A stretch of 46,378 bases of DNA from Sphingobacteriales bacterium (GTDB taxonomy: Bacteria > Bacteroidota > Bacteroidia > Sphingobacteriales > Sphingobacteriaceae): assembly GCA_004293485.1 (NCBI GenBank), contig RDYW01000047.1:1-46378 (forward strand), written 5' to 3'. Positions 30,028-39,961 of this stretch are shown here, piece by piece (position 1 is the stretch's first letter; each line of letters begins with the position of its first letter). The translations under genes were made by a program, and so were the position numbers. The notes below the pieces were generated by a model. The model was not told the DNA's origin. It made no database searches and worked only from the letters and a program-made list of their open reading frames with translations.

Positions 30028-30630
30028 ATGACCCAAGCCTTAATTATATTTTTAAAACACCCCCAATTAGGCTTGTGCAAAACCCGAATAGCCAAAACTA
30101 TTGGCCATATTAATGCTTTAAAAATATACCAAAAATTACTGCAACACACCCATCAAATTACCCAAAACCTACCCGTACAAAAATATTTATATTTTGATAA
30201 ACCCAGCGATAACCCATTAAATTGGGCTGGTAATTATAAAATCGAATACCAAAATCAAGGTAATTTGGGAATCAAAATGGAGCAGGCTTTCGCCGAAGTT
30301 TTTAATAGGCAACATTATCCAGTAATTATTATTGGTACCGATTGTATGGAGCTTAGCACCCAAATTATTAACGATGCTTACCGACAATTAAACTATTACG
30401 ATGTAGTAATAGGCCCTGCCAAAGATGGAGGCTATTATTTGCTAGGCTTAAACAATCCCACACCTAAAATTTTTAAAAATATAGCTTGGAGCACCGCTAC
30501 TGTACTATCCGATACCATAAAAACGGTACAAAACCTAGGTTTAAGTTATTGTTTTATGCCGTTATTATCGGATGTAGATGTGGAAGAGGATTTGAACGAT
30601 GAACTGCGTAAACTTATCAGCGAAAGTTAG
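30028..30630 (+). CDS. TIGR04282/DUF2064-type glycosyl/nucleotidyltransferase-like protein
   Basis: A 200-residue Rossmann-like protein. ALIIFLKHPQLGLCKTRIA, VIIIGTDCMELSTQIINDAY, VVIGPAKDGGYYLLGL and LSDVDVEEDL are the family marks (CofC/ArsG-like sugar-phosphate or nucleotide transfer). In the literature some members are tied to arsenosugar synthesis, but nothing here indicates that. It is the last gene of the carotenoid/haem cluster, 27 nt after hemH. Confidence 0.8.
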   Translation: MTQALIIFLKHPQLGLCKTRIAKTIGHINALKIYQKLLQHTHQITQNLPVQKYLYFDKPSDNPLNWAGNYKIEYQNQGNLGIKMEQAFAEVFNRQHYPVIIIGTDCMELSTQIINDAYRQLNYYDVVIGPAKDGGYYLLGLNNPTPKIFKNIAWSTATVLSDTIKTVQNLGLSYCFMPLLSDVDVEEDLNDELRKLISES

Positions 30631-30860
30631 GTGAAATTAGTTTGATAAAAATGCTTTTGGGGTATAACGGTTAGTGCTTTGCGATGTTTGGAAATTTGAA
30701 AATTTTTCGCCCACAACGGAAGGAAAATTTAAAAACTAATGTTAACGATAGCAACAAAAGTCAAATTGAAACTCGTCTGCCCAAAAATGCCACATAAAAC
30801 TACAATTGTTCATTATTATCCCGACCACCCCCAATATTGCAAAACACCGTCTATCGGCAG
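30631..30860. other. Cassette-like boundary DNA upstream of the accessory island
   Basis: No convincing gene. The stretch has GTATAACGGTTAGTGC (from about 30661), ACAACGGAAGGAAAATTT and TCTGCCCAAAAATGCCAC, the style of imperfect-palindrome spacer that commonly surrounds accessory genes in Bacteroidota. CGGAAGGAAAATT here resembles one arm of the hairpin at 24688-24727. A 60-codon frame through it has no protein-like character. Confidence 0.35.
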
Positions 30861-30931
30861 TTTTGTTTACTCAATTGGTATAAATAAGTCCACGATACAT
30901 TTTTTTCAGGATGTTCATTGAAGTTGTTATG

Positions 30932-31768
30932 TTAAATTTCAAATGGATACTTATCTGCTTTTTTATAGCCATTCTCATTCATCCAAATAAATAAACTGTC
31001 CCAAGATTTTTCAAATTCATTTGGTTCAATAATAAAATGTCCAACAATATTTTTACCCTTTTCAATTGTTGTAAGTCCAACTTCGCCATCTACGGTTAGC
31101 TTTTGGCTTGTAATAATTCCAATGCTCATTCTTACTTTATCAGCATCTGTTACTTTAAAACTGTCGTGAAAAACTCTACACATATTTGTGTCTTTTTGAG
31201 CAAATAACCCTTTCGGCATCGCCCATTTAACAATTCGCTGAAAAGCACCGTTTATTCCGTTTACTCCAATTTGTGTAACATACGCCAAATTCATTTTTGG
31301 CATTTCTATAATTTCAATTTTCGCATTCATTTTTATCCAATTTTTAAGATTATTAATGTTGCAAAGGTATTGTTCGGTAATAAAATTTACTTTACCGTTA
31401 TTGCTATTCATTTTACTAATCTTGCTAAAATTTCCCAAATTTGATTTGCGAAACTCTAACGGACTTTGTCTATATATTTTTTTAAATGTTCTTGAAAAAT
31501 TTGATGCGTTATTAAATCCATATTTGCAGGCTATTTCCACAATAGTATATTCCTTATTGTGTATAAGCATCATTGCGGTTCTTTCAATTCGTTTTCGGGT
31601 AATGTAGGTATTTAGTGTTTCATTAGTTATTGCTTTAAAAAGTCTGTGTAAATGAAAAGGGGAATAATAGGCAACATTTGAAATTGAATGTAAGGATAAT
31701 TCAGTGTCCAAATTCTCGTCAATATATGTCAAAACCTTATTTATTCTTTTAATATATTCTTCTAGCAT
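30932..31768 (-). CDS. AraC-family regulator with GyrI-like domain, 3' end damaged
   Basis: A 278-residue regulator starting at ATG 31768 (MLEEYIKRINKVLTYIDENL); the 24 codons ahead of it are spacer DNA. Residues 1-105 are an AraC-type pair of helix-turn-helices (SLHSISNVAYYSPFHLHRLFKA, IVEIACKYGFNNASNFSRTF). The rest is a GyrI-like ligand domain (IEIIEMPKMNLAYVT, KADKYPFEI). The frame stops at TAA 30932-30934 exactly where this domain normally reads FEIY. Beyond the stop, in frame, comes HNNFNEHPEK, then after a one-base slip in an A run CIVDLFIPIE, the expected family ending. The gene therefore appears to have lost its last 20 or so codons by nonsense and frameshift. Confidence 0.85.
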   Translation of the reverse strand: MLEEYIKRINKVLTYIDENLDTELSLHSISNVAYYSPFHLHRLFKAITNETLNTYITRKRIERTAMMLIHNKEYTIVEIACKYGFNNASNFSRTFKKIYRQSPLEFRKSNLGNFSKISKMNSNNGKVNFITEQYLCNINNLKNWIKMNAKIEIIEMPKMNLAYVTQIGVNGINGAFQRIVKWAMPKGLFAQKDTNMCRVFHDSFKVTDADKVRMSIGIITSQKLTVDGEVGLTTIEKGKNIVGHFIIEPNEFEKSWDSLFIWMNENGYKKADKYPFEI

Positions 31769-31794
31769 TTCTTGTAGGTGAGGTTGTAAAATTG

Positions 31795-32250
31795 GCGCAT
31801 AACGTTTTCGGCCATGGCGAAGTGCCGGATTTAGAAGCACTTAATTTCAATTTAGCACTAATGTTCATTTCAAAACCGAATGTTCAATTTAGCACTGACC
31901 CGCCACTTTTGCCAAAACCGTATTATAGCCAGTGTTATTTGACCACCTTCACTGCAAACCATTATAGGTATTAAGTTTCTGTCTCATTGTCGTGTTAGCT
32001 GTGCCTTGCGTTTTTTATTTGAATCTAAGTTTTTTAAAGTGTTGGAGAAAAAAAAATTGAGATTACTCGCTGTTTTATTTTTTTATAGGTGTTCGTGATT
32101 GCTATGGAGTTTTCTTTTGGGTCGGTGAGGAGGAAGCTCTTTTGCAATTTTTGGTCTGTGCGTTGGCTTGTGCGAAACTTTAGTTCACGAACACCGAAAC
32201 TAAAAAACAAACTGTGAGTAATTGCAAATGTGCTTATACCTGTGCGATGG
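31795..32250. other. Cassette-junction DNA between araC-like and the R-M operon
   Basis: No gene is supported. It contains GCGCATAACG (31795-31804). It also contains an imperfect inverted repeat joining GTTTTCGGCCATGGCGAAGTG (from about 31804) with CCACTTTTGCCAAAACCG (about 31902-31920). A second inverted pair is GGTGTTCGTGA (32088-32098) with TCACGAACACC (32185-32195). A 39-nt block at 32136-32174 recurs beyond hsdR. The structure recalls attC-like or spacer repeats between accessory cassettes in Bacteroidota. Confidence 0.5.
32136..32174 (+). repeat. Direct repeat flanking the R-M island, left copy
   Basis: A 39-nt block beginning GCTCTTTTGCAA and ending GGCTTGTGCG. It matches 39662-39700 in the same orientation at 33 of 39 positions with no gap, by my hand count. 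It lies just past the last gene of the R-M operon. Confidence 0.6.
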
Positions 32251-32910
32251 CTATTTACAACACACCTTAACAAAAATCCGTTTTATAACTCCGTTTTGCT
32301 CAACCGCCTTAACAACAAGCTTTAGTAAGCTACCTTTTTGCTTATAGAAAACTCTTGAATGAATTTTCTTAATGTAACCTACTTCTTTGTTGCCTTTAAA
32401 AACTTTTACAGCCTTATCATCAAACTCATTGTCTGATTCTAATTTATAGGTCAATATATCTCCAGCCTTAACACTGTCTGCCGACAATTTTAGAGTACTT
32501 AAACTAGCTAAATCTGTAAGAAATCGTAAACTTTTGTTTGGGTTATAATCAGCTAAAAATTCAAAATTATCGGTTGGGATCAAACCTTGTGTATGAGCCA
32601 ACAAATAAAATTTATCCTCTTTAAATTTTGTGTCGATTTCCCAAAAATCATAAAAATCTGAAATGTCTGAACGTTCAGATTTCATAATTCTTTGCCCAAA
32701 AACTTCTAAAACGTTTTCGGTATATTCTTTGTCAGAATTAGGAAATTCAGTATAGGGTGAAAAACCGTCTTTCTTGGCTGCATCAACACCTTTTTTTATA
32801 TAAGAAAAGCGAACGCCCAGCGTAGCGTTTCTTTTTAAAACGCCCACGATGTGTCTTCTTTTGCCAAGACCCTCTCTCCAACTAAGGTATATGTGACCTA
32901 TCTCTTTCAT
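32251..32910 (-). CDS. HIRAN-domain protein, partner of the HipA-like kinase
   Basis: A 219-residue protein. The first half (GHIYLSWREGLGKRRHIVGV, FSYIKKGVDAAKKDGFSPY, YTENVLEVFGQRI) resembles the short N-terminal domain of HipA-type proteins. The C-terminal part (about 140-215), with NEFDDKAVKVFKGNKEVGYI, fits a HIRAN domain, a fold that binds DNA 3' ends or damaged DNA in other proteins. Its ATG overlaps the stop of the kinase gene as ATGA, so the two are translationally coupled and probably work together. It is the last gene of the R-M operon. The family features are recognisable; the function is inference. Confidence 0.7.
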   Translation of the reverse strand: MKEIGHIYLSWREGLGKRRHIVGVLKRNATLGVRFSYIKKGVDAAKKDGFSPYTEFPNSDKEYTENVLEVFGQRIMKSERSDISDFYDFWEIDTKFKEDKFYLLAHTQGLIPTDNFEFLADYNPNKSLRFLTDLASLSTLKLSADSVKAGDILTYKLESDNEFDDKAVKVFKGNKEVGYIKKIHSRVFYKQKGSLLKLVVKAVEQNGVIKRIFVKVCCK

Positions 32911-33974
32911 TTGTATTGAGAATAAATTTCCCTCAATTTATTTAACCGCAAAGTTAGCAATTTCAAAACCAATTCTTTCCTTTCTTTTGGTAAGTAGTTA
33001 CTATTGCCTAAATCGAATAATTCTTTATCTACATATAACACTATCTGCTCAACCTTTTTGGGGTCAAATTGCTCTGTGATTCTTTTGAGTGGATCAAGTA
33101 CAATATCCTTTAAACCCTCACTTTCAAGGAGCTTAACTATTAACTCAAAATGACTTATTTTGTTGCTTTCCCAATGTATTTCTGCTTGTCCTTTAGCGAT
33201 ATATTTTTGGATTTCCTGTTCATTGTTGAGCATATTTTTTACTCTTTCATCATCCAATTCGCGACCAAAACTACAGCCGCTATCATAAATTGGGGCAAAC
33301 CTTGTAATTTTTGGTAACATCAATCTTGCTGTTTGAATTTCCGGTCGTATTTTCCCTTTTACAGTATATAGTGCTTTGACAATTTTTTTTAACCAGTTTG
33401 GCATTTCATTAATTTCACCCGTAATAATACCTTTTTCAACTTGAGCAACTCCTTCTGAAATTATTGTATGAACATTGATAATTGCCCAGTTTTCCTGATG
33501 TCTGTCGCTGTTACCTATCAATGCATCAAATACAATTGTTTCTGCTAACTCCTTTAAATGTTTTTCCTTTTTAAAAGAAACCAATGCATTTAGAATTAAA
33601 TCGAAATTATATTGATTACGAAGTTTGATGTTTTCAGGTTTAAAAGTATTATCAAATGCCTGCAAATATTTTCCTCCTTCAATTAACTCTTCTGATGCTT
33701 GATTAATCATTGATTTTGAAATACACCCAACAACATTTCCTCTAATGGCAATGTGATAAGGCAAAATGTCAAATCCCAAAAGTTCGCCTATTTCGGAAGC
33801 AATTATTTCTGACCAAAATTCGTATTTATAATCGCGTTGACCTTTTTTAAAAGATTGTTTAAAATAGTACAACTCACCATCTTCGGGATTCAAATATATT
33901 TTTTTATCTCGTGTGCCTCCTGTGTTCCACCACGATTGCTCATTCCATTCTGATATGTTGTAAAGCTTTGCCAT
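32907..33974 (-). CDS. HipA-like Ser/Thr kinase (CtkA/HipA fold)
   Basis: A 355-residue protein starting at ATG 33974 (MAKLYNISEWNEQS), which overlaps the hsdMS stop as TAATG. A candidate ATP-binding Lys is K39 (YYFKQS), and a helix-C Glu lies near 52 (YEFWSEIIASEI). The catalytic segment is FDALIGNSDRHQENW (149-163), with D157 and N162, and the metal-binding segment is FAPIYDSGCSF with D231. This matches the HipA pattern NxDxHxxN plus YD. HipA kinases phosphorylate protein targets and can arrest growth or act with an antitoxin. No HipB-like DNA-binding antitoxin is next to it; instead a HIRAN protein follows with a 4-nt overlap. Kinase fold is likely; the target is unknown. Confidence 0.8.
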   Translation of the reverse strand: MAKLYNISEWNEQSWWNTGGTRDKKIYLNPEDGELYYFKQSFKKGQRDYKYEFWSEIIASEIGELLGFDILPYHIAIRGNVVGCISKSMINQASEELIEGGKYLQAFDNTFKPENIKLRNQYNFDLILNALVSFKKEKHLKELAETIVFDALIGNSDRHQENWAIINVHTIISEGVAQVEKGIITGEINEMPNWLKKIVKALYTVKGKIRPEIQTARLMLPKITRFAPIYDSGCSFGRELDDERVKNMLNNEQEIQKYIAKGQAEIHWESNKISHFELIVKLLESEGLKDIVLDPLKRITEQFDPKKVEQIVLYVDKELFDLGNSNYLPKERKELVLKLLTLRLNKLREIYSQYK

Positions 33975-36550
33975 TATACAGTTTCCACTTCCACTTTCAC
34001 GCCCCAAACCTCACCAATTTTTGTTTTTATTTTTTGCTCAAATATTTCTATTAAGTGTTTGTTGGCATTTACCAATTTCATTTCTTCTTCTATCGCTTTT
34101 ACAATGGTTTGTTGTTCTTCAATTGGTGGAATTGGTATTTGAATTTTTACAATTGCATTTCCATTGAATTGCGGTTGTCCGCCACCAGTCATTAATCTTG
34201 CTGCTTGTTGGATATAGTTTTCACTTTGAGCAAATGCCCAATAATATTTCGGGTAAATTTTTGTTTTATCGAAATTCAAGCGAATTAAAAATGAAGCAAA
34301 TACAGCAGGATAATCTTCATCAAAAATCATTGTCTTCCCGTAGGTTGCACCAGTACGAGCAACAAGAATATCATCTTTTACTACAAGACTTTGTTTCGCT
34401 TCCTTAGTTAGTTCAACATATTTCGGGTCAGTATCTTTTAATTTACCATCTGAACCAATATCTGTAATACGAATAAATCTTGCATTTCCTTTTTCTTTCG
34501 CAGTTTCAGTAAATCCATATTCAGGTTTACATACTTCTCCCAACTCCACCATTTCCCAATCTGGGTTGATGGTGATGGTAGGTTTGTAGTTGTTGACTAC
34601 TTGTTTGGCTCCGTCTATTATTTTTTGGTAGTTTTCTATTTCGGCTACTATTTGTTGTTGTATTTCAAGCGGTGGGAGTGGGATTTCAAGTTCTCTTACT
34701 TGATTGAGATAAAGACCCTTTTGACTAGAACCAGTTGCTATAGACTCAATATATGTCCTACTATTGTTTATGTAATATAGCAGGAATTTGGGTATAATCA
34801 TTTCCGTATTTCCTCTTAACAGAATGATGTTTCCCATAATATTGAAATTTTGTCCTTCTCTAACTATTGCAGGATTTCCGATTGTGCCTCTTGAACTTAA
34901 AAGCACATCATTTGCATTTGGCTTGCATCTTTGGCTTAATTTTAAATCGGTTTCTTTTGAAATAAATTTTGTAGGGCAAGTGTCATCAATTAATAACTCA
35001 CGAATATTTTTTGAATCTAACATTGGAATACCTGTAGACTCATATTGCGGTGACAAATGAACTCCATCAGTAATCAAACTGCATATTTCATCAAGACGAT
35101 AAGTATTCCATTTTTCACTTCTAGCTTGTTTTTCAAAATATCTTTCTGCACTCAATACAATATCTTTATTTCCTAAAACAGTTTCCTTCTCAACTAAAGT
35201 GGCAATTGTCTGAATTTGGATTTCTTTGATTTCAGGATTAAAGGATTTTACTTTTTGGGTAATGCTATCTATCATTTTTTCTTCAATCCTATCATCCTCT
35301 AATCCTACAAATCCTAATACTGACTTATATGCTACCAAGGTTTGCAAAGCCAATGGCAAATCGTTTTTATCAATTTCTCTGCGTTGTGCTCCTAAATCAA
35401 AGCCATCGTTTTCTATTTTCAAAAACAAAATGTGTTGGCTTTTTTTTGCCAAGCGTTTATCTAAAATCAATACCGATGTTTTTACACCGCTGTATGGCTG
35501 AAACACACCTGCTGGCAAACTAATTACGGCAATCAAACTATCTTGCACCATCATTTTTCGCAATTGTTTGTAAGCGGTTTGGCTTGTTGCTACAATTCCG
35601 TTTGGTACTACAATTCCTGCACGTCCGTTGCTGTTTAAGTGTTCGGCAATGTAATCGGTAAACAATACTTCGGCTTTGTTGGCTTGTACGCCAAATTTTT
35701 TGTGTGGTCTGATGCCGCCTTTTGGTGTCATAAATGGCGGGTTTGCCAATATCACATCAAAGGTTTCTTGCCAACGGTCTTCGCTGCTCAAACTGTCGTA
35801 CTCGTGTATGAGTGGCGTAGCAAAGCCGTGTAAATACATATTGGCTAAACTCAAACGTACCATATCGGGGCTAATGTCGTAACCCACAAAATTAGTGGCG
35901 AGTTTTTTTCTATCGTCTGGCTTTAGTTTGTCGCCTTGGCGTTTGTCGGTGTTTTGGTTGAGTATGTGTTTGTATGCACTCAATAAGAAACCAGCCGTTC
36001 CGCAAGCAGGGTCAAGCACTGTTTCGTTTTTTTGTGGGTTTACACAAGCCGTTACAAAATCAATAATGTGTCGTGGAGTTCTAAACTGCCCTGCATCGCC
36101 TTGGCTTCCCATTACACTCAACAAGTATTCAAAAGCATCGCCTAACTTTTCGCTGTGGCTGTATTCAAACTCATTGATGTGTTTTAAAAACAGTTTTAAA
36201 GTGCTTGGGTCGCGGTAAGGCAGATAAGCATTCTTAAAAATGTTGCGGAACAGTTCAGGAATATTTGGATTGGTATTTAGTTTTTCCAATGCTTCGCTGT
36301 ACAACGCTAGCATATCTTGTCCACTTAGCGATGGGTCAAATAATTTACGCCAACCGTATTTGGCATATTCGCCTGAAAAGAATTTTGCTTTGCCTTTAAA
36401 TTTCTCAACGGCTTCTTTATCCATATCGTCCATAAACTTATAGATAAGAGCCAATGTAATTTGTTCAATTTGGCTTTTCGGGTCGGGTACTTTACCTACC
36501 AACACATCACGGCAATCGTCAATATTTTTCTTTGTAATGTTGTCTAGCAT
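33974..36550 (-). CDS. Fused type I R-M methyltransferase-specificity protein (HsdM-HsdS)
   Basis: An 858-residue fusion. Residues 1-470 are HsdM, an N6-adenine methyltransferase: an N-terminal helical domain, GQFRTPRHIIDFV (154-166), SAM motif DPACGTAGF (180-188) and catalytic NPPF (270-273). Residues 478-640 and 664-840 are two HsdS target-recognition domains, starting WNTYRLDEICSLI and WEMVELGEVC. Each ends in the typical helical spacer (IPLPPLEIQQQIVAEIENYQ and IPIPPIEEQQTIVKAIEEE). Most type I systems encode hsdM and hsdS separately. It lies 17 nt after the GxxExxY gene and is coupled to the kinase gene by TAATG. Confidence 0.93.
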   Translation of the reverse strand: MLDNITKKNIDDCRDVLVGKVPDPKSQIEQITLALIYKFMDDMDKEAVEKFKGKAKFFSGEYAKYGWRKLFDPSLSGQDMLALYSEALEKLNTNPNIPELFRNIFKNAYLPYRDPSTLKLFLKHINEFEYSHSEKLGDAFEYLLSVMGSQGDAGQFRTPRHIIDFVTACVNPQKNETVLDPACGTAGFLLSAYKHILNQNTDKRQGDKLKPDDRKKLATNFVGYDISPDMVRLSLANMYLHGFATPLIHEYDSLSSEDRWQETFDVILANPPFMTPKGGIRPHKKFGVQANKAEVLFTDYIAEHLNSNGRAGIVVPNGIVATSQTAYKQLRKMMVQDSLIAVISLPAGVFQPYSGVKTSVLILDKRLAKKSQHILFLKIENDGFDLGAQRREIDKNDLPLALQTLVAYKSVLGFVGLEDDRIEEKMIDSITQKVKSFNPEIKEIQIQTIATLVEKETVLGNKDIVLSAERYFEKQARSEKWNTYRLDEICSLITDGVHLSPQYESTGIPMLDSKNIRELLIDDTCPTKFISKETDLKLSQRCKPNANDVLLSSRGTIGNPAIVREGQNFNIMGNIILLRGNTEMIIPKFLLYYINNSRTYIESIATGSSQKGLYLNQVRELEIPLPPLEIQQQIVAEIENYQKIIDGAKQVVNNYKPTITINPDWEMVELGEVCKPEYGFTETAKEKGNARFIRITDIGSDGKLKDTDPKYVELTKEAKQSLVVKDDILVARTGATYGKTMIFDEDYPAVFASFLIRLNFDKTKIYPKYYWAFAQSENYIQQAARLMTGGGQPQFNGNAIVKIQIPIPPIEEQQTIVKAIEEEMKLVNANKHLIEIFEQKIKTKIGEVWGVKVEVETV

Positions 36551-36567
36551 ATTGTCTGAACCTTTGA

Positions 36568-36990
36568 TTAGCGGTGATTATTTTGATTAACTATGATTTT
36601 GTTGAACTTTGGATTAACCAGTCTCCTGTATTCTAAACTTTTGTTTCCAAAATTTATTAGCATTCCAATTTCAAGGTTGTATGCCTCTAAATAATTTATG
36701 GCTTGTGCCAGATGCACATCTTCCAATTTTGTTAATGCTTTTAACTCTACTGAAATAAAGCCCTCTACTAAAAAATCAACTCTTCTTGTTCCTATTTGTT
36801 CCTCTTTATAAAAAATAGGCATTTCGTGTTCTCTACTAAAACTAAAGCCTTGCAAAATCATTTCTTTTTCTAATGCTCTTTGATAAATAACTTCTTGAAA
36901 TCCATTTCCAAGAATTTTATGTACCTCCATTGAGCAACCGATAATTTTCCCAGTTAAGTCAGAGTATTTATATTGTTCTTTTACAATCAT
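36568..36990 (-). CDS. GxxExxY protein
   Basis: A 140-residue protein of the GxxExxY family, with ATG 36990 as start. The name-giving motif is G30-F-Q-E33-V-I-Y36, followed by PIFYKEEQIGTRRVDFLVEG and ISVELKALTKLEDVH. The pattern (Glu, Asp, then E-x-K) resembles a PD-(D/E)xK nuclease core, which is how this family is usually interpreted. It sits inside the R-M operon, 31 nt after hsdR and 17 nt before hsdMS. Such genes are common in Bacteroidota, often near mobile DNA. Its role in the R-M unit is unknown. Confidence 0.85.
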   Translation of the reverse strand: MIVKEQYKYSDLTGKIIGCSMEVHKILGNGFQEVIYQRALEKEMILQGFSFSREHEMPIFYKEEQIGTRRVDFLVEGFISVELKALTKLEDVHLAQAINYLEAYNLEIGMLINFGNKSLEYRRLVNPKFNKIIVNQNNHR

Positions 36991-37021
36991 AGTCAATCAT
37001 TAAATCAGTTTAATCACAGGT

Positions 37022-39574
37022 TCAGACGAATTTTTGCATTGGAACGTAGGTTTTAATGTAGTAAGGCAGTTTGCTTTTCATTTCATCATCTACACGATTA
37101 AAGTCTTCTACATTAAAACTTGGGTTGTGATAGAGTTCAGTAAAATCTTGTTGGTCTATAATATTTCTTACGCTTGGGTCGGTGATGTAAGCATAAAAGA
37201 AATAGCGTAAGCCTTGCAAATCGTCTATATTGGAAACATTGTTGGTGCTGATAAACTTTTCAAATTCATCACTCAATAAATCGTCTTTGCCTTTTATTTG
37301 GTTGCCAAAATAAATGAGTTCTAATAATTCACGCCAACCAATTTTGCGGTCGATTTTTAACGACCTGCGAAGTTTTTCCAAGTCAAAATATTCTTCTGGT
37401 TTGTTGTCGTATTTCTCTTTGGCTCTTGCTGTGGCTACTTCCACATCACCAGCCTCCATCAACTGTTTTATTTCAACATCAGTTTTTACCTTTTCTTCAA
37501 ACTGCTGAAAAAACATTCGGTCAACCTTCATTCCTGCAAAGTCAACTTGTTGTTCGTGTAAAGAATGAATTCTATCATCTTCTTTGTACTCGTAACCTTC
37601 TCGTTTTGGTTTGATGGTGTTGTCGTCCACCGTTGGCATATCATCGCCTTTGTCGAAGTTTACAGGCAGTTTTAATACTTGGTCGTACTGATATTTTTCT
37701 TCAAAGTATTCGCAAGTAGCAAAGAAGTCAAAGAGTTTAAACGCTGCTTTGTCAATGGAAATGTTTTCTTCCTCGCCAAGGTCGTTTTTAAATTTGTGTT
37801 CAAATTTGTGAATACGAGTTCCTCGTCCTTTAATCTGAATAAATTCTGTTGGCGAAAATATTGGTCGCATCAAACCAAGGTTTAAAATATTTGGGCAATC
37901 CCAGCCGGTGGTCATCATTCCAACAGTTACACAAACTCTTGCTTTGCTTGTTTTGTAGGATTCTAAAATTTCGTTGTCTTTGGCAAAATGGCTAAAGCCC
38001 AATAATTTGTCATTGCTAAAATCAACTGTCATTTGCTGACTGTTCTGCACATTGGAAGTTACTTGAACGGCAAAGTCGCTTTGATACTTGCCAGGAAATA
38101 TTTGGTGTGCATATTCATTGAGCAGTTGAGCCAATTTTGCAGCGTGATTTTGCGAAACGGCAAAAACCAAACTCTTTCCAAACTCTCCGTTAATTGGGTC
38201 TTTCAGTCCATTTTCAATAAATGTTTTGCAAAACACACGGTTGGTTTCTTCGCTGAAAAACTTCCTTTCAAAATGATTTTGCTTATAATTTACTTCTTCT
38301 AAAATGTCCTCTTGTTCGCTACTGGCAACCGTTACCATAATACCGTAACCTTGCTCTGATAAAAGTTTGGTGGTTACATCAGTTCGTGCATCTACCACAA
38401 TAGGCTGTCGCAAATAGCCATCTTTTGCACCGTCCACAAGCGTATATCGATATGTTGGAATGCCACTCTCACAACCGAAGGTTGTGTAAGTGTCAAGCAA
38501 CATTCTCCGTTCTAGCTCTCGTGGGTCGTCAATGTTGTCGGTGTCTAAATGTTTTAAATAGTCTTTTGGTGTTGCTGTTAAGCCTAATTTGTAACCCAAG
38601 AAATATTCAAACAATGCTCTGCTATTTCCACCTCCTAGTAGTCGGTGCGATTCATCAGAAATAATCAAATCAAAGTCGGTCGGTGAAAAAAGCGTTTTGT
38701 ATTTGTTGTTTACCATCAACGATTGAATGGTAGTAACCACAATGTCCGCTTTACGCCAATCGTTTTTCTTCTCTTTGTAAACAACTGTTGTTATGTCGTT
38801 TTTTAAATAGTTGGTAAAATCTTTTCTTGCTTGTTCTTCCAATTCCAAGCGGTCAACTAAGAATAAAATTCGTCTTGCGTTTCCAGTTCTGTAAAAGAGT
38901 TTGATTAATGCAGCAGCAGTCAATGTCTTTCCTGTGCCTGTTGCCATTTCCAACAAGAAACGATTTTTGCCTTCACTTACTGATTGCTGAACGGCTTTGA
39001 TTGCTTCAACTTGGTAATAGCGAAGAAAACGAAGTTTCAAATTGAAAATTAAATCTTTCTTTTTCTGCTCGTCTTGAAACTCAGGTATTTGTTTGTAGTT
39101 CGGAAGTTGTGTTAAAACAACATAGTCGTCATTTATTTGTTCGCTAACTAATTTGCATGGGTCGGGATTGAATTGATAATATTGTTTAATGGATTCCAAT
39201 GTCGGAAACACTTGAATTTGTTCAGGGTTCCCAGTTTCTATATTCCATAAATAATGAAGTGTTCCGTTTGAAAGAATAATGAATTTAACCTTTTGAGATT
39301 TGGCGTAATTCCTTGCTTGTTCTTTTCCAACAAGTGGATTCAAACTTTCTTTCTTCGCTTCTAAAACTAGTATTGGGTTTTGGTTTTCGTCAACCAGCAA
39401 AAAGTCAATGAAACCACTTTTAGAATTTTCAAAGTCTACGCCTAAATCGTCCATTTTGATGGAAGATTCCAATTTAATAGTTGCTATACCTTTGTCCGTG
39501 TCAAAGAAGCTCCACCCTGATTCCTCAAGGAGTTTATTAATTTTTATTCTTGCTTTAGCTTCTTTTTCTGCCAT
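37022..39574 (-). CDS. hsdR: Type I restriction endonuclease R subunit
   Basis: An 850-residue HsdR of the EcoEI-like type, which cuts unmodified DNA after ATP-driven translocation. The N-terminal nuclease has D57 (GFIDFLL) and E72-A-K74 (LVLEAKKE), a PD-(D/E)xK site. The helicase motor has Walker A ATGTGKT (211-217), DESH (307-310), GLTATP and the motif VI segment IQIKGRGTRIHKF. The C-terminal part (about 690-850) interacts with HsdM/S in this family. It is the first gene of the R-M operon, transcribed away from aroB and from its own flanking repeat. Confidence 0.94.
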   Translation of the reverse strand: MAEKEAKARIKINKLLEESGWSFFDTDKGIATIKLESSIKMDDLGVDFENSKSGFIDFLLVDENQNPILVLEAKKESLNPLVGKEQARNYAKSQKVKFIILSNGTLHYLWNIETGNPEQIQVFPTLESIKQYYQFNPDPCKLVSEQINDDYVVLTQLPNYKQIPEFQDEQKKKDLIFNLKLRFLRYYQVEAIKAVQQSVSEGKNRFLLEMATGTGKTLTAAALIKLFYRTGNARRILFLVDRLELEEQARKDFTNYLKNDITTVVYKEKKNDWRKADIVVTTIQSLMVNNKYKTLFSPTDFDLIISDESHRLLGGGNSRALFEYFLGYKLGLTATPKDYLKHLDTDNIDDPRELERRMLLDTYTTFGCESGIPTYRYTLVDGAKDGYLRQPIVVDARTDVTTKLLSEQGYGIMVTVASSEQEDILEEVNYKQNHFERKFFSEETNRVFCKTFIENGLKDPINGEFGKSLVFAVSQNHAAKLAQLLNEYAHQIFPGKYQSDFAVQVTSNVQNSQQMTVDFSNDKLLGFSHFAKDNEILESYKTSKARVCVTVGMMTTGWDCPNILNLGLMRPIFSPTEFIQIKGRGTRIHKFEHKFKNDLGEEENISIDKAAFKLFDFFATCEYFEEKYQYDQVLKLPVNFDKGDDMPTVDDNTIKPKREGYEYKEDDRIHSLHEQQVDFAGMKVDRMFFQQFEEKVKTDVEIKQLMEAGDVEVATARAKEKYDNKPEEYFDLEKLRRSLKIDRKIGWRELLELIYFGNQIKGKDDLLSDEFEKFISTNNVSNIDDLQGLRYFFYAYITDPSVRNIIDQQDFTELYHNPSFNVEDFNRVDDEMKSKLPYYIKTYVPMQKFV

Positions 39575-39961
39575 CTAATTCAGTTCAATTTTTTGTCGGT
39601 CAAGATACGATTTTTCACCCTTAAAACGATCATTATCGTTCTGTGGCGGGTGGGAGAATTGGCTCTTTTGCAAGCTTGGGTTTGTGTGTCGGCTTGTGCG
39701 GCTTGCTAATGTGCCAATTGTGCGATGGCAGAATTTCAATTTTTTTTGTGCGGTGGGGAAAAAATAAAAAACATAGCGTTGGTCAGCGTGTCGGTTTAGA
39801 AGCTGTCCTGTTGCAATATGGTCTGTATGTTTTTGGTCACCTGTCAAAATGGTTTGTCTTTGTGTTAATGTTTAAATTTTAGGTCGGTCTGTCGTCTTTG
39901 GTACGGTCGTCCTACCATTAGCGCATAACTCTCCACCTTCCCCGAACGCCTTAAAATAAAT
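39575..39961. other. Right boundary DNA of the R-M island
   Basis: No gene is supported. It contains an inverted repeat AACGAT/ATCGTT (39625-39640) that could be an hsdR operator, the right copy of the 39-nt repeat, a GC-richer block (39641-39800), and GCGCATAAC (39921-39929), which also occurs at 31795-31803 in the same orientation. A minus-strand 90-codon frame here and a 79-codon frame at the left boundary translate to similar nonsense, which reflects the shared DNA repeat. Confidence 0.5.
39662..39700 (+). repeat. Direct repeat flanking the R-M island, right copy
   Basis: A 39-nt block beginning GCTCTTTTGCAA and ending GGCTTGTGCG, 33/39 identical to 32136-32174 in the same orientation. 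It lies 88 nt upstream of the hsdR start. Confidence 0.6.

What the first reader, a model, noticed from the sequence alone, without database searches (positions are those of the whole stretch)
32251..39574. Type I R-M operon coupled to a HipA-like kinase and a HIRAN protein
Five minus-strand genes run hsdR, GxxExxY, hsdM-S fusion, HipA-like kinase, HIRAN protein, with gaps of 31 and 17 nt and then overlaps TAATG and ATGA. The sequence shows that the last three are translationally coupled, so kinase and HIRAN protein should be made in proportion to the methyltransferase. HIRAN domains bind DNA ends or lesions in other proteins, and HipA kinases can arrest growth. A testable idea is that the kinase-HIRAN pair senses restriction products or failure of modification and halts the cell, as a second defence layer or a safeguard of the R-M unit. 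A HipB-type antitoxin is absent.
Basis: partly seen in the sequence, partly recalled or inferred. Interest (0 to 1): 0.75.

Follow-up and report, generated by a model that had tools for sequence, protein, structure and literature searches.

The report
Toxin-like kinase riding restriction-modification operons
A bacterial DNA-restriction operon carries at its end a ready-made two-gene module, a toxin-like kinase and a protein that looks like its inhibitor joined to a DNA-end-binding domain; the same module occurs alone and on phages but is found behind restriction genes far more often than controls, which suggests a second, growth-stopping layer of phage defence that I found no test of.

Summary
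In detail: hsdR, GxxExxY, an hsdM-S fusion, a HipA-like kinase and a HIRAN protein form one minus-strand run with the stated overlaps. The last two genes fit a predicted class, HipI-HipN (Gerdes 2021), and PADLOC candidate PDC-M03A/B. The HIRAN protein is not only a DNA binder: its modelled N-terminal half has the fold of HipS, a kinase-blocking antitoxin, its C-terminal half that of HLTF's DNA-binding HIRAN domain. So HipB is absent, but an antitoxin-like domain is present. The pair does not need R-M: 51 of 68 chromosomal relatives and 58 of 58 viral ones lack R-M within 4 kb upstream, as does the window's closest relative in the 3.5 kb readable. Yet R-M linkage is strongly enriched (17 of 68, against 1 of 40 HipA loci and 3 of 310 neighbouring genes), needs at least 12 changes on the kinase tree, and involves several R-M types. 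Best model: a self-contained kinase gated by HipS-HIRAN, RloC-like in logic, that arrests growth on sensing DNA ends and is repeatedly recruited behind R-M genes. Identity and architecture are well supported; inhibition, gating, target and defence role are inferred.

The parts
37022..39574 (-). hsdR, type I restriction subunit (850 aa)
   Evidence: ResIII 2.9e-41, HSDR_N_2 1.6e-9; EcoAI/FtnUII-type NCBIfam hit below its cut-off
36568..36990 (-). GxxExxY / PD-(D/E)XK family protein between hsdR and hsdMS (ATG start; the listed TTG ORF starts at 36996)
   Evidence: TIGR04256 1.5e-38
33974..36550 (-). hsdM-hsdS fusion (858 aa; methyltransferase then two target-recognition domains)
33972..33976 (-). 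TAATG stop/start overlap, hsdMS to kinase
32907..33974 (-). HipI-type kinase (355 aa); PADLOC PDC-M03A; CtkA/HipT fold by model of the relative L063
33489..33506 (-). kinase catalytic loop D157-R158-H159-..-N162
   Evidence: D157, R158, H159 and N162 each 74 of 74 intact kinases
33294..33485 (-). extra segment (residues 164-227) between catalytic loop and D231; segment length 47-90 aa in most of the Bacteroidota-type clade, 23-37 in L052, L059, L075 and L089, 15-23 in distant and phage members
   Evidence: helical in the L063 model
33282..33284 (-). D231, metal-binding Asp of the DFG-equivalent (role by analogy)
   Evidence: 74 of 74
32907..32910 (-). ATGA overlap, kinase to HIRAN gene
32251..32910 (-). 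HipN-type protein (219 aa): HipS-like + HIRAN; PADLOC PDC-M03B
32545..32910 (-). HipS-like / HipA N-subdomain-1 domain of HipN (residues 1-122)
   Evidence: AF2 model pLDDT 95.3; Z 10.6 to HipS(Lp) 8ezr_A, rmsd 2.4, 99 aligned; Z 11.6 to HipA N-terminus 2wiu_C
32254..32538 (-). HIRAN domain of HipN (residues 125-219) with N161/F163/D164/A167 motif
   Evidence: Pfam; Z 9.9 to HLTF HIRAN-DNA 6kcs_A, rmsd 2.1; N161 74/80, D164 74/80, A167 76/80
30618..39958 (.). block absent from congener G400 (R-M operon, pair and an AraC/GyrI-like gene)

Best explanation
The kinase and HIRAN genes are a HipI-HipN module: a short HipA/CtkA-type kinase followed by an antitoxin-like partner that joins a HipS-type kinase-blocking domain to a HIRAN domain of the kind that binds DNA 3' ends in HLTF. 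Shown here: match to the class, catalytic residues, the two-domain partner (by model), near-constant pairing, natural fusions, stand-alone and phage carriage, and strong but facultative association with R-M genes just upstream. Inferred: HipN holds the kinase off through its HipS domain; binding of DNA ends by HIRAN (restriction fragments, phage-degraded DNA, stalled forks) releases or re-orients it; the kinase then phosphorylates a translation component, as HipA and HipT do, and the cell stops growing. Because the sensor is built in, the module works alone, but sitting behind R-M genes ties its dose to an enzyme that makes DNA ends in invaders. In logic it resembles the DNA-break-activated toxin RloC, not the R-M-silenced PrrC.
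For: PADLOC PDC-M03A/B; HipI-HipN description in PMC8262856 (passages). HipN model: residues 5-122 match HipA N-terminus and HipS, 125-219 match HLTF HIRAN bound to DNA. Kinase part of the L063 model matches CtkA Z 28.0 and HipT Z 18.4; profile E 4e-27 to CtkA. K39, D150, D157, N162, D231 invariant in 74 of 74. A HipN hit directly follows the kinase in 76 of 80 chromosomal loci; of the other four, L053 has a disrupted HipN start, L096 the first residues of HipN at the contig end, and L030 and L066 end inside the kinase. A HipN ORF lies beside or fused to the kinase in 75 of 75 viral loci, 15 of them fusions (some are near-copies). R-M upstream in 17 of 68 against 1 of 40 HipA controls (p 0.0024) and 3 of 310 internal controls (p 2.6e-11). 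At least 12 changes of R-M state forced by starred branches. Kinase broken with HipN intact in 7 loci, the reverse in 1, a weak hint that the kinase is the harmful partner. RloC/PrrC comparison: PMC3874168 and PMC12707154 (passages).
Against: No activity, toxicity, DNA binding or defence has been measured. HLTF's stacking Tyr93 aligns with F163, and this column is variable (Y 22, F 20 of 80). HIRAN-less kinase + HipS-only pairs also follow methyltransferases in 3 of 3 loci seen (L023-L025), so R-M association does not require a HIRAN sensor. Most pairs (51 of 68) are not linked to R-M. The asymmetry of broken genes (7 kinases, 1 HipN) is not significant for their lengths (about 0.13, my estimate), and draft-assembly errors may contribute: in L053 an apparently intact kinase is followed by a HipN broken after about 22 residues. 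HipA_C is below Pfam's cut-off in the window kinase.
Confidence: 0.43

Rival explanations
1. Dedicated R-M guardian (PrrC-like): the R-M complex itself holds the kinase off, and anti-restriction proteins or failed modification release it.
For: Overlap with hsdMS; 17 of 68 loci have R-M upstream; the gap to the preceding gene is short in linked loci, median 15 against 93 nt in unlinked same-strand loci.
Against: 51 of 68 relatives and 58 of 58 viral loci with 4 kb upstream have no R-M there; closest relative L030 shows none in the 3.5 kb readable; linked systems are type I, IIG, ISP, beta-class and DISARM-like, with no evident common protein to bind. In PMC3874168 prrC is described as invariably linked to a type Ic R-M locus (passage).
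Confidence: 0.1
2. Addiction module: a conventional toxin-antitoxin pair that stabilises the R-M island or prophage carrying it, with no role in sensing DNA ends.
For: Toxin/antitoxin-like architecture; block of about 9.3 kb present/absent between congeners; pairs next to integrases in a Clostridioides and a Vibrio phage.
Against: 15 of 75 viral loci have single-chain fusions in which the inhibitor cannot decay separately from the toxin; several kinases are broken while HipN stays intact; Flavobacterium copies sit behind an aldehyde dehydrogenase-sized gene without R-M methyltransferase genes (Pfam checked in L062 only).
Confidence: 0.22
3. Passive hitchhiking: 3' ends of R-M operons are tolerated landing sites in defence islands, and there is no functional link.
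For: Most copies are elsewhere; no fixed R-M type; L104 and L108 have R-M next door but on the opposite strand.
Against: Enrichment over classical HipA loci in the same phylum and over other genes in the same loci; same-strand, closely spaced placement downstream of R-M genes; no other recurrent neighbour (commonest Pfam family 3, commonest PADLOC family 2, of 74 upstream proteins scanned).
Confidence: 0.2
4. The kinase phosphorylates R-M subunits to tune restriction (self-protection of the host), with HipN as a DNA-responsive regulator.
For: Overlap with hsdMS.
Against: Module occurs without R-M and on phages; related kinases with known targets act on tRNA synthetases (PMC8262856 table, passage).
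Confidence: 0.05

Closest known systems
HipI-HipN (hipIN) putative toxin-antitoxin modules, Gerdes et al. 2021 (PMC8262856, passages)
   Same: Short Hip kinase without N-subdomain-1, followed by a two-domain HipS-like + HIRAN protein; same gene order
   Different: Paper describes HipI in Actinobacteria, Firmicutes, Proteobacteria and Cyanobacteria; the word stems 'restriction' and 'bacteroid' do not occur in its main text. Here: mostly Bacteroidota, a longer kinase segment, and frequent placement behind R-M genes
PADLOC candidate PDC-M03A/B
   Same: Both proteins match
   Different: Candidate only; no paper naming PDC-M03 found in the library
HipBST (HipS-HipT) of E. coli and Legionella
   Same: HipS-type kinase inhibitor; kinase fold
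   Different: No HipB here; inhibitor domain is fused to HIRAN
HipL kinases
   Same: Same three domains in the same order (15 viral fusions found here)
   Different: One polypeptide instead of two
RloC and PrrC anticodon nucleases (PMC3874168, passages)
   Same: Translation-disabling toxins linked to R-M (PrrC) or activated by DNA breaks and only rarely R-M-linked (RloC)
   Different: Anticodon nucleases with ATPase domains, not kinases
CtkA (Helicobacter pylori)
   Same: Best solved structural match of the kinase (Z 28)
   Different: The depositors call it a proinflammatory kinase; its gene context was not examined here
diDNase-HIRAN-HipA clusters (PMC11706625, passages)
   Same: HipA + HIRAN genes predicted to be defence genes
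   Different: Third gene is a dinuclease, not an R-M system

Membership tests
HipI-HipN module | Short Hip-type kinase with Gly-rich loop near N-terminus and core catalytic motifs | tested here: met
   G20, K24, K39, D157, N162, D231 conserved in 72-74 of 74; PDC-M03A 4.3e-57
HipI-HipN module | Downstream partner with N-terminal HipS-like domain | tested here: met
   Model residues 4-121 vs HipS(Lp) Z 10.6; by sequence 5 of 24 N-termini (two HipS-only proteins among the 24) match Couple_hipA, the window's does not
HipI-HipN module | Downstream partner with C-terminal HIRAN domain | tested here: met
   PF08797 25.6 bits, cut-off 24.7; Z 9.9 to HLTF HIRAN
HipI-HipN module | Placement in the published Hip tree (clade XI, HipI subclades) | not tested
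   Published sequences were not fetched
Toxin-antitoxin system | Kinase toxic alone and neutralised by partner | not testable with these tools
   Indirect and weak: broken kinase with intact HipN 7, reverse 1
HIRAN DNA-end sensor | Conserved DNA-pocket residues (HLTF N91, Y93, D94 equivalents; the role of D94 is recalled) | tested here: inconclusive
   N161 74/80, D164 74/80, but the Y93 column is variable; N90A-N91A disrupts HIRAN function in HLTF (passages of PMC11237066); Y72 and Y93 stack on the DNA bases (passage of PMC4666394)
Type I R-M system | HsdR, HsdM and HsdS functions with their family domains | tested here: met
   (domains only; no activity)
PrrC-type R-M guardian | Obligate genetic link to an R-M system | tested here: not met
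   51 of 68 without R-M within 4 kb upstream; 0 of 58 viral loci with it
HipBA toxin-antitoxin | HipB HTH antitoxin gene adjacent | tested here: not met
   Neighbours are hsdMS and HipN; next gene downstream is AraC/GyrI-like, 410 nt away

The most novel reading that the evidence does not exclude
A two-step immune operon: R-M cuts foreign DNA, and the HIRAN half of HipN reads the resulting 3' ends as proof of infection and licenses the Hip kinase, released from its HipS half, to shut down translation. The same DNA-end-gated kinase cassette has been plugged behind R-M systems of several types many times independently and is also carried by phages.
Probability: 0.3. Interest if true: 0.82.

Novelty: new variant of a known kind. 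Interest (0 to 1): 0.57.

Why it matters
Known links between restriction and programmed arrest seem few; the R-M guardians named in the review passages I saw are PrrC and PARIS (PMC12707154). Here a Hip kinase is paired with a partner whose modelled halves are a kinase inhibitor and a DNA-end binder, which gives a concrete and easily tested switch. Recruitment of one cassette to type I, IIG, ISP, beta-class and DISARM-like loci would make it a general add-on, and would give a function to prokaryotic HIRAN domains, called uncharacterised in PMC11090510 (passage).

Tried and rejected
PrrC-like obligate guardian: rejected as the main reading by the survey. Operon promoter search: counts close to those of shuffles, uninformative. 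Plasmids: no kinase match and one lone HipN. First viral-contig scan with the window kinase alone found no relative. Direct repeats between 160-nt and 150-nt stretches around the block's two junctions: none of 9 nt or more. HipS by sequence against PDB chains: no credible hit, so it rests on the fold. A 107-row mixed alignment for the complex was misaligned (kinases mostly 10-18% identical to the first row) and was replaced by a 27-row one. A 7-to-0 asymmetry of broken genes that I first drew did not hold: L053 has a broken HipN behind an apparently intact kinase. Literature: PDC-M03 0 papers; HIRAN + HipA + restriction-modification 3 papers; HipN/HipI experiments: none seen in the listings beyond PMC8262856. 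Absence is for this open-access library only, which states that it holds no bioRxiv preprints.

Counting rules and dropped rows. One search kept the best 80 of 421 confirmed loci, so the sample leans to the Bacteroidota-type clade. The 17 of 68 uses loci with at least 4 kb upstream (12 of 80 dropped, L030 among them); R-M means HsdM, HsdS or beta-class methyltransferase. HsdR-profile hits alone were not counted, because a helicase profile is unspecific: L065, L067, L072, L073, L074, L096, L101; of these only L072 was scanned, with the aggregated Pfam and PADLOC calls showing one type I R subunit (T1RH-like_C, REase_I) among the 74 proteins, which I take to be L072's, so L072 and L100 (methyltransferase downstream) are in the 68 but not among the 17. 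The tree has 77 rows: window, 72 of the 80 loci (8 broken kinases left out) and L020, L021, L027, L028; 19 labelled R-M (window and L100 included), 50 none, 8 unlabelled (under 2 kb upstream). L104 and L108, with R-M next door on the other strand, count as none. Gap medians are to the nearest preceding gene of at least 100 aa, which in six linked loci (L034, L054, L055, L076, L078, L087) is an accessory gene, not R-M. Dereplicated at 90% identity, intact kinases only: 14 of 56 clusters have R-M. Residue counts leave out L030, L053, L066 and the broken kinases. For some searches I gave 74 of 148 listed upstream genes (same strand only, without the genes of seven Flavobacterium loci and others already scanned or very long). 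HipA controls: 40 loci chosen from the listing, mostly best-scoring with room on the contig. Viral loci: 56 pairs, 15 fusions and 4 whose HipN overlaps more or follows a short kinase ORF (L203, L242; L241, L250).
Full report
Observation. Profile searches agree with its gene names. The kinase is a weak HipA_C match (23.1 bits, cut-off 30.5) and the HIRAN match is just above its cut-off (25.6 against 24.7), but PADLOC's models name the two genes at once: PDC-M03A (191.8 bits) and PDC-M03B (95.1 bits), a listed phage-defence candidate.

Identity. Gerdes et al. [quoted passage not shown] I tested this architecture on the window. An AlphaFold2 model of the window's HIRAN protein (39 aligned sequences, mean pLDDT 95.3, pTM 0.91) has two domains: residues 5-122 match the HipA N-terminal subdomain (2wiu_C, Z 11.6, rmsd 2.7) and HipS (8ezr_A, Z 10.6, rmsd 2.4, 99 of 101 residues); residues 125-219 match the HLTF HIRAN domain bound to DNA (6kcs_A, Z 9.9, rmsd 2.1). 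In HipBST, HipS blocks the kinase by inserting a Trp near the Gly-rich loop (PMC10627512, passages). So the statement that no HipB antitoxin is present is true, but a HipS-type antitoxin domain is built into the HIRAN protein. By sequence the HipS half is recognised in only 5 of 24 N-termini scanned (Couple_hipA, best 1.5e-8) and not in the window's own protein.

Kinase. The profile of six relatives finds CtkA in the PDB at 4e-27. A model of the kinase and HipN of a relative, L063, read through the single stop between them (27 rows, pLDDT 90.7, pTM 0.76) matches CtkA at Z 28.0 and HipT at Z 18.4. K39, E56, D150, N155, D157, R158, H159, N162 and D231 are invariant in 74 of 74 intact kinases, so these look like active enzymes. 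Between the catalytic loop and D231 most of the Bacteroidota-type clade has 47-90 residues (23-37 in four members); distant and phage members have 15-23.

The pair is the unit. A profile scan of genome contigs gave 80 loci, the best of 421. A HipN hit follows the kinase directly in 76 of 80, two of them cut by the contig end; of the other four, L053 has a disrupted HipN start, L096 the first residues of HipN at its contig end, and L030 and L066 end inside the kinase. In viral contigs 75 loci were found; all 75 have a HipN ORF beside or fused to the kinase, and 15 are single-chain fusions, the HipL arrangement; several of the 75 are near-copies. Annotated phage examples lie beside integrase genes, and a fusion lies between replication-endonuclease and exoribonuclease genes and the portal gene of Escherichia phage 899.

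R-M linkage is facultative but strongly enriched. By one automatic rule (HsdM/HsdS or beta-class methyltransferase gene, same strand, ending within 4 kb upstream): 17 of 68 HipI-HipN loci; 1 of 40 classical HipA loci of the same phylum, and that one 3,963 bp away; 3 of 310 other genes in the same loci at least 5 kb from the kinase (Fisher p 2.6e-11 against the internal control; 0.0024 against HipA). The gap to the preceding gene is short in linked loci (median 15 nt, n 19, against 93 nt, n 42, in unlinked same-strand loci; p 1e-4), though in six of the linked loci that gene is an accessory one. Only L100 has a same-strand R-M gene within 4 kb downstream. Linked systems are type I (10 loci by profile; four of their subunits in four loci confirmed by Pfam), type IIG or Eco57I/MmeI-like (L051, L055, L076, L083, L087), type ISP (L050), a beta-class methyltransferase (L041) and a DISARM/Druantia-like composite (L100). 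The sister kinases L050 and L051 sit behind methyltransferases of different type. On the kinase tree the R-M label needs at least 12 changes, all 12 forced by starred branches; random labels need 16.9 on average and at most 2 of 500 shuffles were as low, so the label is also somewhat clustered. The window's nearest relative L030 (88% identity over 234 aa) has no R-M hit in the 3.5 kb upstream that its contig holds. Of 58 viral loci with 4 kb upstream none has R-M there; one of 75 has an HsdM- or HsdS-profile hit at all, downstream. Among 74 upstream proteins of unlinked loci no other family recurs much (Pfam at most 3, PADLOC at most 2).

Which partner is harmful. In seven loci (L072, L084, L088, L090, L095, L097, L107) the kinase is frameshifted or truncated while HipN is full length; L096 has an in-frame stop in the kinase and its contig then ends. 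The reverse occurs once: in L053 an apparently intact kinase is followed by a HipN broken after about 22 residues. Seven to one is not significant given the gene lengths (about 0.13, my estimate), so this is only a hint.

The island. In a congener (G400; aroB protein 93% identical) the genes flanking the window's block are adjacent: nucleotide matches end at 30617 and resume at 39959 in the window, and lie 34 nt apart in G400. The R-M operon, the pair and an AraC/GyrI-like gene are thus one present/absent block. Of 17 other genomes of the genus searched with the kinase, 16 had no match and one a weak match of 30% identity.

Mechanism. My best reading: HipN holds the kinase off through its HipS half; the HIRAN half, which keeps the N and D of the DNA pocket in 74 of 80 relatives each, senses DNA ends and releases the kinase; the kinase stops growth, probably by phosphorylating a translation component as HipA and HipT do. 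Natural fusions argue against activation by antitoxin decay and for a ligand-driven switch. This is the logic of RloC, a toxin activated by DNA breaks and only rarely linked to R-M, rather than of PrrC, invariably linked to and silenced by R-M (PMC3874168, passages). Shown: architecture (by model), pairing, linkage. Inferred: inhibition, DNA gating, target, defence. Evidence against DNA gating as the reason for the R-M link: three of three kinase + HipS-only pairs without HIRAN (L023-L025) also directly follow, or lie one gene from, Eco57I/MmeI-type methyltransferases.

Novelty. The two-gene class was predicted in 2021 and is in PADLOC; HIRAN-HipA clusters with a dinuclease were reported in 2025 (PMC11706625, passages). 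I found no paper that tests HipI-HipN or reports its recurrent placement behind R-M genes (searches; listings, open-access library only, no bioRxiv). That PADLOC's PDC-M03 was itself found through embedding in defence operons is possible; I recall such a programme but could not check it. I therefore call it a new variant of a known kind.

Noticed in passing
L023:2018-3438, L024:9388-10842, L025:8409-9814: HipA-like kinase followed by a 131-aa HipS-like protein without HIRAN, directly behind (L023, L024) or one gene after (L025) Eco57I/MmeI-type methyltransferases: a HIRAN-less cousin that also sits behind R-M genes.
   Followed up: partly
window 33974-36550; also L034:5405-7927 and L054:2893-5418: HsdM and HsdS fused in one protein (two target-recognition domains in the window's), which would give one M per S instead of the usual two (the usual ratio is recalled).
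   Followed up: no
window 36568-36990: GxxExxY (PD-(D/E)XK-like) gene inserted between hsdR and hsdMS; a single-sequence search found no homologue in the 80 HipI-HipN loci.
   Followed up: no
L050:5208-9987 and L051:4760-9996: Two sister loci share small upstream genes of the same or similar size and order, but carry methyltransferases of different type (Type ISP against Eco57I/TaqI) before sister kinases: an apparent R-M swap in place.
   Followed up: partly
L034:8303-9160, L054:6178-7278, L055:9034-9708, L076:5973-6929, L087:8991-9947: Accessory genes lie between R-M and the kinase: a putAbiC-domain protein (L054), DUF4062 proteins (L076, L087) and proteins without a Pfam match, suggesting a shared accessory slot.
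   Followed up: partly
L100:1858-14652: Magnetococcales composite of DruE-like and DpdE/DrmD-like helicases, the HipI-HipN pair and a DrmMI-like methyltransferase in one run of same-strand genes.
   Followed up: partly
L026:4019-5578; L198-L201: HipL-type kinase-HipS-HIRAN fusion in Escherichia phage 899 (annotated hypothetical); 100% or 87% identical copies on four viral contigs.
   Followed up: partly
L062, L065, L067, L073, L074, L081, L096: In these Flavobacterium-type loci the pair sits behind a 515-517 aa gene that is an aldehyde dehydrogenase in L062 (Pfam checked there only), without HsdM/HsdS hits, which suggests long vertical residence.
   Followed up: partly
L029:7983-8732 (pOSC7112.02): Plasmid HipN-like gene with no kinase detected beside it and about 1.4 kb of unannotated sequence upstream: a possible orphan antitoxin.
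   Followed up: no
window 30932-31840: AraC-type regulator with GyrI-like domain inside the same present/absent block, 410 nt downstream of HipN on the same strand.
   Followed up: no
L241:7989-9600, L250:2163-3877: Two viral copies with a short kinase ORF (168 and 217 aa) before a full-length HipN, perhaps broken kinases.
   Followed up: no
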